A stretch of DNA of 64,000 nucleotides from NCBI GenBank assembly GCA_963662155.1, contig OY759265.1, positions 57,069,652 to 57,133,651 on the forward strand, written 5' to 3'. This DNA is from Lamellibrachia columna. Its lineage: Eukaryota > Annelida > Polychaeta > Sabellida > Siboglinidae. Both the position numbers and the translations under genes were made by a program. The notes under the pieces are model-generated. The model saw only the letters and a program-made list of their open reading frames with translations, did not search any database and was not told where the DNA came from. Shown one piece after another: positions 1 through 64,000 of this stretch. Positions within the stretch are counted from its first letter, which is position 1; each line of letters begins with the position of its first letter.

Positions 1-3000
1 TGAATATTTCCATGATAAACCACCAGAGGTGTACTTCTACACAATACCCTTTCATCCAAACAGTAAGTAACTTTTTTTGCAATTAATAACATTTGTTTAC
101 TGGTACAGGTATTTGTAACATATATGTTTACTGGTACATGTATTTCTAACATTTGTTTACTGGTACAGGTTTTTGCAACATTTATGTTTACTGATACAGG
201 TATTTGTAACATATATTTTTATTGATACAGGTATTTATAACAGATATATTTACTGGTACAGGTATTTGTAAAATATGTTTACTGGTACAGGTATTAAAAA
301 AAATATGTTTACTGGTACAGGTATTTGCAACAGCTATGTTGTCAGTTACTGTCTGGTGGGAAACGTATTATATATGCACACAGCAGAGGGTAAAAATGGA
401 AACATGCATTTAGTGCACAACACAAAACCATGCATTTAGTGCAGTTGGTATCAGGTGTGATTGTACTCTTACTTTTATGTCTGAAAGTATGTTCCAGTAT
501 AGGTGGCAATTGAACACGTTGTGTTTTCCAGTTGATCCAGTCAGTGGACGGCCATGTGTCGATTTTCTTGACGATCCACAAAAATGGTCGTCAGAGTATT
601 CCATCTCCTACATCTTGCTGTCATTACAGGTGTCATCTCATTATTACTTACTTACTTACTTACAATGTCATTTTGCTGGAATGTTTTTTTATCTCTTGAT
701 CAGTGTAATTCTGAATTATAAATTGTCTACACTTAATTTATTTTGCTTTAAAATATTAAAATATATATTATGTTATATTATTGGCATGTTGAAAACAAAT
801 AATTCATTGTTGAAATAATTAAGAGTCTGTGGAATAATTACTATAGATGGTAATAAAATGTTATGAAAATGACTGTAAGCTCGCTGCACATGTTTTACAT
901 TGTCTATCGCAAACAAAATAGACTAAACTGATTTTGCCTTTGTATTAATATCTTGAGCACCACAAAGGGTAAATCCACAATACATCACACATCCATCAAC
1001 TTATGTCACCCACGACTTGCTCCCTCCAACAATGTGTTTGATTATATTATGATTTCTGCTGACAGATTTTGCCTCAAAAATGAGTTAATTGTCTTGATGT
1101 TAAGGGTTATTGTCAGACCCAGTAATGAGTGTTCTCTACAGTTGCTGCTGGATGAACCTGTCCTCCAAAACCCTGTCAATGTGGAGGCGATGACACTGGT
1201 GCTGACTCAGCCAGACAAGTACAGCAGCATCATCCATCACTGCGTCACAGCCAGCCTCCATACTCCAGGCACGTCACTCCCCATTTCATAACTTGTCACT
1301 CCCTGTGCATAATCACAACACTCCAGGCAAGTCACTCCCCATCTCATAGCTGTGTCACTCCCTGTACATAATCACAACATTCCAGGTACGTCACTCCCCA
1401 CCGCATAGCTGTGTCACTTGCTGTACATAATCACAACACTCTAGGTACGTCACTCCCCATCGCATAGCTGTGTCACTCGCTGTACATAATCACAACACTC
1501 CAGGAATGTCACTCCCCATCTTATAGCTGTGTCACTCGCTTTACATAATCACAACACTCCAGGTACGTCACTCCCCATCTCATAGCTGTGTCACTCCATG
1601 TACATAATCACAACATTCCAGGTACGTTACTCCCCATCTCATAGCTGTGTCACTTCCTGCACATAATCACAACACTCCAGGTATGTCACTCCCCATCTCA
1701 TAGCTGTGTCACTCGCTTTACATAATCACAACACTCCAAGTACGTCACTCCCCATCGCATAGCTGTGTCACTCGCTGTACATAATCACAACACTCCAGGT
1801 ACGTCACTCCCCATCTCATAGCTGTGTCACTCCCTGTACATAATCACAACACTCCAGGCACGTCACTCCCCATTTCATAGCTGTGTCACTCCATGTACAT
1901 AATCACAACACTCTAGGCACGTCACTCCCCATCTCATAGACATGTCACTCATTGCATTTAATCACAATAGTCCAGGCACGTCACTCCCCATCTCATGGCT
2001 GTATCACTCGCTGTACATAATCATAACACACCAGGCATGTCACTCTCATAGCTGCTTCTCTCTCAGTACATAATCACAATTGAATCTTTGGCAAGTTTGA
2101 TCACCACAGTTCACTCAGCTGTATAAATGAGTACCTGGCAATACAGACAGTAGTGGATATGTGAACGAATAGTCTTTGAGCAGTAATTGCAGCATGGCTG
2201 AATGCTTCCCAGAGAAGTTGAAATAGCCTTGGAATGAACAGGTCTGCCAGGGGTGAAGTGTAAAGTGCTTTGAGCAGTCCTAAGGACTGGATACCGCGCT
2301 ATATAATAACTTACCTTTACCTTTACCTTTCACTCTTATAGCTGCTTCTCTCACTGTGCATAATCACAATACTCCAGGCACGTCACTCTTATAGCCGCTT
2401 CTCTCACTGTGCATAATCACAATACTCCAGGCACGTCACTCTTATAGCTGCTTCTCTCACTGTGCATAATCACAATACTCCAGGCATGTCACTCTTATAG
2501 CCGCTTCTCTCACTGTGCATAATCACAATACTCCAGACACGTCACTCTTATAGCCGCTTCTGTCACTGTGCATAATCACAATACTCCAGACACGTCACTC
2601 TTATAGCCGCTTCTCTCACTGTGCATAATCACAATACTCCAGGCATGTCACTCTTATAGCTGCTTCTCTCACTGTGCATAATCACAATACTCCAGACACG
2701 TCACTCTTATAGCCGCTTCTCTCACTGTGCATAATCACAATACTCCAGGCATGTCACTCTTATAGCCGCTTCTCTCACTGTTCATAATCACAATACTCCA
2801 GACACGTCACTCTTATAGCTGCTTCTCTCACTGTTCATAATCACAATACTCCAGACACGTCACTCTTATAGCTGCTTCTCTCACTGTTCATAATCACAAT
2901 ACTCCAGGCACGTCACTCTTATAGCCGCTTCTCTCACTGTGCATAATCACAATACTCCAGACACGTCACTCTTATAGCCGCTTCTCTCACTGTTCATAAT

Positions 3001-6000
3001 CACAATACTCCAGACACGTCACTCTTATAGCTGCTTCTCTCACTGTTCATAATCACAATACTCCAGACACGTCACTCTTATAGCTGCTTCTCTCACTGTT
3101 CATAATCACAATACTCCAGACACGTCACTCTTATAGCCGCTTCTCTCACTGTTCATAATCACAATACTCCAGACACGTCACTCTTATAGCTGCTTCTCTC
3201 ACTGTTCATAATCACAATACTCCAGGCACGTCACTCTTATAGCTGCTTCTCTCACTGTTCATAATCACAATACTCCAGGCACGTCACTCTTATAGCTGCT
3301 TCTCTCACTGTTCATAATCACAATACTCCAGACACGTCACTCTTATAGCCGCTTCTGTCACTGTGCATAATCACAATACTCCAGACACGTCACTCTTATA
3401 GCTGCTTCTCTCACTGTTCATAATCACAATACTCCAGGCACGTCACTCTTATAGCCGCTTCTCTCACTGTTCATAATCACAATACTCCAGGCACGTCACT
3501 CTTATAGCTGCTTCTCTCACTGTGCATAATCACAATACTCCAGACACGTCACTCTTATAGCTGCTTCTCTCACTGTTCATAATCACAATACTCCAGGCAC
3601 GTCACTCTTATAGCTGCTTCTCTCACTGTTCATAATCACAATACTCCAGACACGTCACTCTTATAGCTGCTTCTCTCACTGTTCATAATCACAATACTCC
3701 AGACACGTCACTCTTATAGCTGCTTCTCTCACTGTTCATAATCACAATACTCCAGGCACGTCACTCTTATAGCTGCTTCTCTCACTGTTCATAATCACAA
3801 TACTCCAGGCACGTCACTCTTATAGCTGCTTCTCTCACTGTTCATAATCACAATACTCCAGGCACGTCACTCTTATAGCTGCTTCTCTCACTGTTCATAA
3901 TCACAATACTCCAGACACGTCACTCTTATAGCTGCTTCTCTCACTGTTCATAATCACAATACTCCAGGCACGTCACTCTTATAGCTGCTTCTCTCACTGT
4001 TCATAATCACAATACTCCAGGCACGTCACTCTTATAGCTGCTTCTCTCACTGTTCATAATCACAATACTCCAGGCACGTCACTCTTATAGCTGCTTCTCT
4101 CACTGTTCATAATCACAATACTCCAGACACGTCACTCTTATAGCCGCTTCTGTCACTGTGCATAATCACAATACTCCAGACACGTCACTCTTATAGCTGC
4201 TTCTCTCACTGTTCATAATCACAATACTCCAGACACGTCACTCTTATAGCCGCTTCTCTCACTGTTCATAATCACAATACTCCAGGCACGTCACTCTTAT
4301 AGCTGCTTCTCTCACTGTTCATAATCACAATACTCCAGACACGTCACTCTTATAGCTGCTTCTCTCACTGTTCATAATCACAATACTCCAGGCACGTCAC
4401 TCTTATAGCTGCTTCTCTCACTGTTCATAATCACAATACTCCAGGCACGTCACTCTTATAGCTGCTTCTCTCACTGTGCATAATCACAATACTCCAGGCA
4501 CGTCACTCTTATAGCCGCTTCTCTCACTGTGCATAATCACAATACTCCAGACACGTCACTCTTATAGCTGCTTCTCTCACTGTGCATAATCACAATACTC
4601 CAGACACGTCACTCTTATAGCTGCTTCTCTCACTGTTCATAATCACAATACTCCAGACACGTCACTCTTATAGCCGCTTCTCTCACTGTTCATAATCACA
4701 ATACTCCAGACACGTCACTCTTATAGCCGCTTCTCTCACTGTTCATAATCACAATACTCCAGGCACGTCACTCTTATAGCTGCTTCTCTCACTGTGCATA
4801 ATCACAATACTCCAGACACGTCACTCTTATAGCTGCTTCTCTCACTGTGCATAATCACAATACTCCAGACACGTCACTCTTATAGCCGCTTCTCTCACTG
4901 TGCATAATCACAATACTCCAGACACGTCACTCTTATAGCTGCTTCTCTCACTGTTCATAATCACAATACTCCAGACACGTCACTCTTATAGCCGCTTCTC
5001 TCACTGTGCATAATCACAATACTCCAGACACGTCACTCTTATAGCTGCTTCTCTCACTGTGCATAATCACAATACTCCAGACACGTCACTCTTATAGCTG
5101 CTTCTCTCACTGTGCATAATCACAATACTCCAGACACGTCACTCTTATAGCTGCTTCTCTCACTGTGCATAATCACAATACTCCAGGCATGTCACTCTTA
5201 TAGCTGCTTCTCTCACTGTTCTTAATCACAATACTCCAGACACGTCACTCTTATAGCCGCTTCTCTCACTGTTCATAATCACAATACTCCAGACACATCT
5301 GTACATAGCCCTTTCCTTGTACTAATTAGTAACATGACAATGGACAGTCTAATTAGGTTCATTCTAAGGGTGATATTGTTATTGTTTACTGCATGTGTTT
5401 TTGTTAGATCTATGCAAGACAAAGTTTCAATACAGCCAATAAAATAAATTTTAATCTAGAATTTCTTACATTGTAAGTAATAAAAAAAAAAATTAATCTA
5501 ACTTTTTTATTATAGACTAAAATCCTTTTGCTATTATATTAAACAAACTATTATATTAAACAAACTATTTCAAATGGGAAATGATCCCAAACTTCCTCCA
5601 GCTAACAAAGTTGAATTGTACCTTATTTCCTATCAGGTTATTTTATCACTTATTCTCTGTAATTTTAAAAGGAACTACATCAAGAGAGAAACAATTCTGA
5701 CAACCTGGTAGTTGTACCATGAAAACTTTACATTTTCATAGCTTGCCCACCCTGACGTGTATTTAAATAAGAGTCCTATGTTTAAATTGTAGCTATTAAA
5801 TTTTTTTTTCACCTTTCAGCTCTGTCTATGTCGAGTAAGTCCAACAGTATGTCCTCAGCCAGTCGGCGCACATCCCACAAACCTGCCTCCCTGCAACCCA
5901 CCGCCAAACCACTGTCTGCCAAAACAGTGAGGAAACTCTCTTTCGAAGACTACCATGCCACCTGGCGACAGATTGCAACATCAAAACCAGTATCTAGCAT

Positions 6001-63817: not shown

Positions 63818-64000
63818 CTGCCAATACACAAACACACAACTTGACCATGCCGCCAGCACTTAACAACAGATTCTCCACCTGTCAATACAAAAACACACAA
63901 CTTGACCATGCCGCCTGCACTTAACAACAGATTCTCCACCTGCCAATACAAAAACACACAACTTGACCATGCCGCCTGCACTTAACAACAGATTCTCCAC
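63775..64000. repeat. 61-bp repeat copying a GAK 3' splice site
   Basis: On the minus strand each unit reads TTTTTGTATTGGCAG | GTGGAGAATCTGTTGTTAAG + TGCTGGCGGCATGGTCAAGTTGTG. The leftmost copy is the true exon start (63817, [15 protein letters not shown]). Three further copies lie upstream and run off the window edge, so the array probably continues. Each has the AG acceptor and about 44 exon bases. Confidence 0.92.

What the first reader, a model, noticed from the sequence alone, without database searches (positions are those of the whole stretch)
1..64000. A recurrent class: minisatellites born from exon boundaries
At least seven arrays include a real exon boundary in their unit: UBE2U exon 3 donor (1262), UBE2U stop-codon region (8481), HAUS3 exon 4 donor (34008), exon 6 acceptor (37090), exon 9 acceptor (41400), GAK exon donor (59480) and GAK exon acceptor (63775). 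Three independent genes are affected. That many junction-spanning arrays in 64 kb looks non-random. It could reflect a mechanism acting at transcribed splice junctions (R-loops, reverse-transcribed intermediates), or selection against arrays that disrupt larger parts of exons. I know of no described class of this kind.
Basis: inference. Interest (0 to 1): 0.9.

Follow-up and report, generated by a model that had tools for sequence, protein, structure and literature searches.

The report
Exon-edge repeat arrays in a tubeworm
In a genome that is likely a deep-sea tubeworm's, minisatellites repeatedly contain the edge of a real exon together with its splice site, a kind already described in amphioxus under the name "mirages"; exon edges likely found such arrays more often than chance, and the gene likely survives because only the copy attached to the exon is spliced.

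Summary
The arrays are real. Of seven claimed, five span a splice junction with 7-46 exon bases in the unit (UBE2U exon 3, HAUS3 exons 4 and 6, two GAK exons), one spans the UBE2U stop codon, and one (41397-41583) only reaches the acceptor AG. The class is described: amphioxus "mirages". The genome looks like a tubeworm's (HAUS3 98% identical to Lamellibrachia satsuma), so mirages extend to Annelida. Polarity is exon to array: exonic parts are conserved in relatives, and one kinesin paralogue has a 63-bp junction array where its sister has one copy. Of 115 decoys found, 109 keep the splice dinucleotide and 100 score like the used site. Non-randomness: kinase exons gave 8 spanning arrays at 155 ends against 1.55 expected (9 with one boundary moved by hand), the window 5 against 1.70; a prespecified kinesin replication, cut short, gave 1 against 1.05 and failed (2 against 0.91 after a hand change). 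Array edges are 3-fold denser just outside exons too. Best reading: duplication across exon edges, likely tolerated through exon definition.

The parts
1262..5296 (+). UBE2U donor mirage: arrays of 59-bp and 53-bp units; exon ends at 1268 (GC donor), 7 exon nt in the unit
   Evidence: phase fits next exon at 5820; protein joins as in Lamellibrachia satsuma P0089
8481..8922 (+). UBE2U stop-codon array, 48-bp unit, about 9 copies; TAA at 8512-8514; unit carries the conserved C-terminal codons
29828..43315 (+). HAUS3 gene, 13 exons, intact 616-aa reading frame
34008..35580 (+). HAUS3 exon 4 donor mirage: 64-bp unit, 24.6 copies; exon ends at 34052, 45 exon nt
37095..38994 (+). HAUS3 exon 6 acceptor mirage: 77-bp unit, 24.7 copies; exon starts at 38952, 43 exon nt
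41397..41583 (+). HAUS3 exon 9 acceptor array: 37-bp unit, 5.1 copies; carries polypyrimidine tract and AG but at most 1 exon nt
59477..59914 (-). GAK donor mirage: 46-bp and 140-bp periods; exon's last base 59894, 21 exon nt
63772..64000 (-). GAK acceptor mirage: 61-bp unit, at least 3.8 copies (cut by window end); exon starts at 63817, 46 exon nt of the kinase domain
45828..63817 (-). GAK gene, part (kinase domain to J domain), 18 exons placed; stretch 51.8-49.4 kb not resolved
532..8514 (+). UBE2U gene, part

Best explanation
Five of the seven arrays are mirages, minisatellites whose repeat unit carries 7-46 bases of an exon's end joined to its own splice site, likely founded by tandem duplication of a short DNA segment across the exon edge and likely tolerated because splicing uses only the copy still attached to the exon. 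Shown: the exonic part comes from the exon and not the reverse, the pattern recurs at about 5% of the exon ends sampled, and the decoy copies found mostly keep working-looking splice sites. Inferred: copies multiply on the intron side by unequal exchange or slippage; the spliceosome picks the exon-attached site by exon definition (shortest exon). Inferred too: exon edges are over-represented because GC-rich exon-adjacent DNA duplicates more often, and at an exon edge one copy can stay intact while the extra copies fall in intron or 3' UTR, where they do no harm.
For: Anatomy and phases. Polarity: HAUS3 exon 4 and 6 ends and the UBE2U C-terminus conserved in relatives; GAK exon start conserved with GAK of 4c57; in HAUS3 exon 4, 22 of 23 decoy copies encode Glu where the functional copy has Gln, and L. 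satsuma and another relative also have Glu, so the array keeps the older state. Before/after: kinesin paralogues L120 and L125; one has a single junction, the other 2.8 copies of a 63-bp unit of 40 intron + 23 exon nt. Recurrence without hand changes: 8 of 155 kinase exon ends, 5 of 66 window ends, 1 of 75 kinesin ends, 14 of 296 against 4.3 expected, P 1.6e-4; with L066 and L134 moved by hand 16 against 4.14. Decoys: 109 of 115 keep the splice dinucleotide and 100 of 115 score at least as well as the used site (within 0.1; UBE2U exon 3 with 35 of 68, and L134, left out). Normal joins in relatives' annotated proteins. GC: exon 0.516, unique non-coding 0.357, arrays of at least 100 bp and 3 copies 0.446, mean of the 19 non-spanning ones 0.425. 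Donor and acceptor both hit (7 and 9), and a stop-codon edge too.
Against: No RNA data, so use of the exon-attached site is inferred from phase and relatives' annotation. The excess over chance is not uniform: kinesin gave 1 against 1.05; with one misplaced boundary corrected by hand (L134) 2 against 0.91, P 0.23. Both hand changes raised the count; ends with arrays close by were not all re-examined for the opposite error. Because arrays just outside exons are also enriched 3-fold, part of the signal may be loss of unique intron next to exons. Decoys were found by likeness to the junction, so strongly decayed copies are missed and the intact share is an upper figure; in the GAK donor array only 2 of 5, and at UBE2U exon 3 only 35 of 68, keep a donor. 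GC preference could be a result of arrays (biased conversion), not a cause.
Confidence: 0.78

Rival explanations
1. Pure chance: the genome is so full of minisatellites that some duplications straddle exon edges at the rate expected from uniform placement, and neutrality does the rest.
For: Arrays cover 36% of the window. Kinesin exons gave 1 spanning array against 1.05 expected. Counting every array, short ones included, the window excess is not significant (5 against 2.51, P 0.11) and the kinase one is weaker (9 against 3.66, P 0.013, with L066 moved).
Against: Kinase exons, chosen without regard to repeats, gave 8 against 1.55 (P 2e-4); kinase plus kinesin 9 against 2.6 (P 0.0015); with the window 14 against 4.3 (P 1.6e-4), all without hand changes.
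Confidence: 0.2
2. Erosion: arrays arise anywhere in introns, unique intron sequence between array and exon is deleted over time, and selection stops the loss at the splice signals, so arrays come to lie against exons.
For: Array edges pile up at 0-50 bp outside exons: 15 in 13.5 kb against 38 in 104.5 kb at 50-500 bp (ratio 3.0, P 7e-4).
Against: It cannot put 7-56 exon bases into the repeat unit; the spanning arrays need a founding duplication across the edge. Spanning units are also longer (median 64.5, n 14, against 28 bp, n 40).
Confidence: 0.25
3. A splicing- or transcription-coupled process (R-loops, pre-mRNA-templated repair) seeds arrays specifically at splice junctions.
For: Excess at junctions in the kinase sample.
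Against: About equal hits on acceptors and donors (9 and 7), a stop-codon edge with the same kind of array, and enrichment that extends outside the junction point to exon edges in general. Spliced RNA as template is excluded by the intron part of each unit.
Confidence: 0.08
4. The arrays are intronic in origin and exons later grew into them (array to exon).
For: None found; formally possible for HAUS3 exon 9, whose unit has no exon part.
Against: In the window arrays where relatives were compared, exonic parts are conserved, and the unduplicated kinesin paralogue has the exon without the array. The kinase arrays were judged only by their match to the family model.
Confidence: 0.02

Closest known systems
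Amphioxus 'mirages' (Canestro 2002, Adh3, not held, known through the next two; Ebner 2010, globins, PMC3087553, passages; PGBD5, PMC3902484, passages)
   Same: Minisatellite-like tandem duplications whose unit spans an exon-intron boundary, at either exon end, with many copies keeping AG/GT and with normal mRNA reported. Units 10-72 bp (Adh3) and 150-160 bp (globins); 35-105 bp here, with a further 140-bp period in the GAK donor array.
   Different: Reported gene by gene in cephalochordates, with RT-PCR and somatic instability data that are missing here. Here: an annelid, many genes, arrays of about 25 near-identical copies, a per-exon frequency, and a before/after paralogue pair.
Internal tandem repeats at exon-intron boundaries of human segmental-duplication genes (PMC2812944, passages)
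   Same: Minisatellites at exon-intron boundaries, with longer units than other tandem repeats.
   Different: There they change gene structure and form new introns in recently duplicated genes; here they sit in conserved genes whose protein seems unchanged.
Intron gain by tandem duplication across AG/GT sites (Rogers model, as cited in PMC3087553)
   Same: A tandem duplication carries a splice site along.
   Different: Here an existing intron is lengthened; no new intron was looked for or seen.

Membership tests
mirage (amphioxus) | minisatellite-like tandem array | tested here: met
   TRF, 3 or more copies in each of the 16 counted
mirage (amphioxus) | unit spans an exon-intron boundary | tested here: met
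   5 arrays in the window, 8 at kinase exons (9 with L066 moved by hand), 1 at kinesin exons (2 with L134 moved). Not met for 41397-41583; not a splice junction for 8481-8922
mirage (amphioxus) | both 5' and 3' exon ends can be affected | tested here: met
   9 acceptors, 7 donors among the 16
mirage (amphioxus) | many copies keep AG/GT | tested here: met
   109 of 115 decoys found by likeness to the junction; UBE2U exon 3 only 35 of 68, GAK donor 2 of 5
mirage (amphioxus) | regular splicing is not disturbed | not testable with these tools
   no RNA; consistent only with phase and relatives' annotated proteins
mirage (amphioxus) | length and somatic instability | not tested
   one assembly only; copy number differs between kinesin paralogues L120 and L125

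The most novel reading that the evidence does not exclude
Exon edges are preferred founding sites of minisatellites in animals: duplications across them happen or survive several-fold more often than in introns. They grow introns by kilobases and leave dozens of intact decoy splice sites beside the used one. The process is active in annelids as well as amphioxus, and each array is a natural test of how splicing picks among equal sites.
Probability: 0.4. Interest if true: 0.75.

Novelty: new member of a known kind. Interest (0 to 1): 0.5.

Why it matters
It moves mirages from an amphioxus curiosity to a recurrent feature of a distant animal phylum, with a first rough frequency (14 of 296 exon ends without hand changes). 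The arrays are ready-made tests of splice-site choice: in the three largest, 21 to 34 copies that score at least as well as the used site are apparently passed over for the exon-attached one. They also bear on how introns lengthen and how intron gain could start. If the excess is confirmed genome-wide, it would point to exon edges as hot or sheltered spots for tandem duplication.

Tried and rejected
Tried without result: the founding amphioxus paper (PMC117041) is not held; microhomology at the founding breakpoints could not be judged because the flanks of the L120/L125 pair have diverged. The first unit-size split (13 long-unit spanning arrays against 2.4 expected) mixed real minisatellites with two-copy noise, so I moved to arrays of at least 100 bp and 3 copies and report that class; it was chosen after seeing the kinase and window data and before the kinesin data. 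All-array figures are weaker: 14 against 6.0, P 0.003, for kinase plus window; kinesin 2 against 2.08.

Hand changes: the L066 boundary moved to the last copy (kinase 8 becomes 9); the L134 boundary moved after the fact (kinesin 1 becomes 2); both raise the count, and one search gives the figures without them. L076 unit set to 68 instead of TRF's 269 (in; one search reached 68 by its own rule). The L125 acceptor array (2.8 copies) fell below the class limit, and the L125 array at exon 261-300 was not in the counted list. 23 of 178 kinase ends and 11 of 86 kinesin ends were dropped for low splice-site score. Window exon ends were set partly by eye. The totals (117 decoys) include 2 of L134 scored at a wrong base, which I left out.

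Rejected: array-to-exon polarity; copying from spliced RNA; assembly artefact as sole cause (conserved exon parts, differing copies; no reads were examined).
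Full report
WHAT THE WINDOW IS. HAUS3, joined from 13 exons, gives an intact 616-aa protein that is 98% identical to the protein annotated in Lamellibrachia satsuma. UBE2U is 94% identical to that species over the piece compared, and a 389-aa GAK piece from an unnamed source matches the window at 99.5%. The organism is therefore very likely a vestimentiferan tubeworm (Annelida, Siboglinidae; lineage), probably of that genus. Gene identities were also checked against solved structures.

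THE SEVEN ARRAYS. TRF confirms all seven. Five carry a splice junction in the unit with 7, 45, 43, 21 and 46 exon bases (UBE2U exon 3 donor, HAUS3 exon 4 donor, HAUS3 exon 6 acceptor, GAK donor, GAK acceptor). The UBE2U array at 8481 includes the stop codon and the conserved C-terminal codons. The HAUS3 exon 9 array ends at the acceptor AG with at most one exon base. The 12 HAUS3 junctions are in phase when the exon-attached copies are used.

DIRECTION OF ORIGIN. The exonic part of the unit is old protein. The HAUS3 exon 4 and 6 ends align with mollusc, starfish, amphioxus and coral HAUS3. The UBE2U C-terminus aligns with Ridgeia and gastropods, and the GAK exon start with GAK of solved structure 4c57. 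In HAUS3 exon 4 the functional copy encodes Gln where 22 of 23 decoys encode Glu, and L. satsuma and another relative have Glu. The array thus kept the older exon state. Two inverted kinesin paralogues on contig C15 give a before/after view. L120 has one copy of an acceptor junction. L125 has 2.8 copies of a 63-bp unit made of 40 intron and 23 exon bases. A second, donor-side array is shared by both paralogues with different copy number.

HOW COMMON, AND IS IT CHANCE? I took exon ends from protein-kinase matches chosen without regard to repeats (111 of 136 listed matches given, 101 of which yielded an end). 178 ends were called and 155 kept after a splice-score filter. Expectation was set from the rate at which the first intronic array begins within 500 bp of an exon, times unit length. 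For arrays of at least 100 bp and 3 copies the kinase sample gave 8 junction-spanning arrays against 1.55 expected (P 2e-4), or 9 against 1.53 with the L066 boundary moved by hand. The window gave 5 against 1.70 at 66 ends (P 0.029). I then wrote down a replication on kinesin exons before fetching it. It gave 1 against 1.05, so it did not replicate by the rule I had set. One clear miscall (L134, where the boundary was set inside the conserved P-loop) would make it 2 against 0.91, P 0.23. Counting short and two-copy arrays too weakens it to 14 against 6.0 for kinase plus window and 2 against 2.08 for kinesin. Array edges are also denser within 50 bp outside exons: 15 in 13.5 kb against 38 in 104.5 kb, ratio 3.0, P 7e-4. 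So the excess belongs to exon edges in general and not only to the junction.

ANATOMY OF THE CLASS. Spanning units are longer than intronic ones (median 64.5, n 14, against 28, n 40). This fits the need for the unit to carry a whole splice site, which is my inference. The exon share of the unit is compatible with random breakpoints (K-S P 0.17, n 14). Acceptors and donors are hit 9 and 7 times. One kinase exon (L067) has an array at each end. Decoys found by likeness to the junction are mostly intact: 109 of 115 keep the dinucleotide and 100 of 115 score at least as well as the used site, within 0.1. UBE2U exon 3 (35 of 68) and L134 are left out of that figure, the GAK donor array has only 2 of 5, and strongly decayed copies are not seen by this method. 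Units are multiples of 3 in only 4 of 16, so use of the next decoy would usually shift the frame.

HOW IT LIKELY WORKS. A short segment across an exon edge is duplicated in tandem (shown for L125 by comparison with L120, inferred elsewhere). The exon-attached copy keeps the exon whole, and the other copies fall in the intron or 3' UTR. The array then expands by unequal exchange or slippage (inferred). Splicing would have to choose the exon-attached site among many equal ones, which for HAUS3 exon 6 means the last of 24 copies with an AG. Exon definition, pairing the two ends of the shortest exon, predicts this; a first-AG rule does not (established ideas, recalled; no RNA here). Exons are GC-rich (0.516) against unique non-coding DNA (0.357), with arrays between (0.446 by length, 0.425 as mean of the 19 non-spanning ones). 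This suggests, but does not show, that GC-rich exon flanks found arrays more readily.

WHAT IS KNOWN. I read passages, not whole texts, of PMC3087553 and PMC3902484: tandem repeats spanning exon-intron boundaries were reported in amphioxus Adh3, globins, troponin C and PGBD5, and those of Adh3, globins and troponin C are called mirages. They occur at both exon ends, with length instability, apparently normal mRNA, unclear mechanism, and a proposed role in intron gain. Passages of PMC2812944 describe human tandem repeats at exon-intron boundaries, with longer units. For tubeworms I saw passages of the Ridgeia genome paper PMC9921365, which ran TRF but, in the passages seen, does not mention such arrays. 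Searches for Lamellibrachia or vestimentiferan with minisatellite, tandem repeats and intron listed no paper that I could recognise as describing them; I saw listings only, apart from the Ridgeia passages. The library holds open-licence papers only.

VERDICT. The claim of non-randomness is likely but unproven, with one replication failing. The new parts are the phylum, the frequency estimate, the before/after pair and the decoy counts.

Noticed in passing
L067 (exon at kinase-domain positions 100-152): One exon carries a mirage on each side (105-bp unit upstream, 35-bp unit downstream with 31 exon and 4 intron bases).
   Followed up: partly
L066: A 63-bp acceptor mirage in a kinase (NEK-like by eye) has an in-frame unit with no stop in its last copies, so decoy use would insert 21-residue repeats; a candidate for alternative isoforms.
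   Followed up: partly
1268; 63692; 46876: Likely GC-AG introns at three donors of the window (UBE2U, two in GAK).
   Followed up: no
23158-24252 (-): Remnant of a reverse transcriptase (Pfam RVT_1 on 23647-24252); a similar-looking ORF at 28327-29148 (+) had no Pfam match.
   Followed up: partly
G000 C15 near 37.894 and 37.940 Mb (L125, L120): Inverted pair of kinesin paralogues with a shared donor mirage of different copy number and a second array in only one copy.
   Followed up: partly
9000-29000: The stretch between UBE2U and HAUS3 also holds long arrays (for example 13946-17400, 42-bp unit, 84 copies), so arrays are not confined to the three genes.
   Followed up: no
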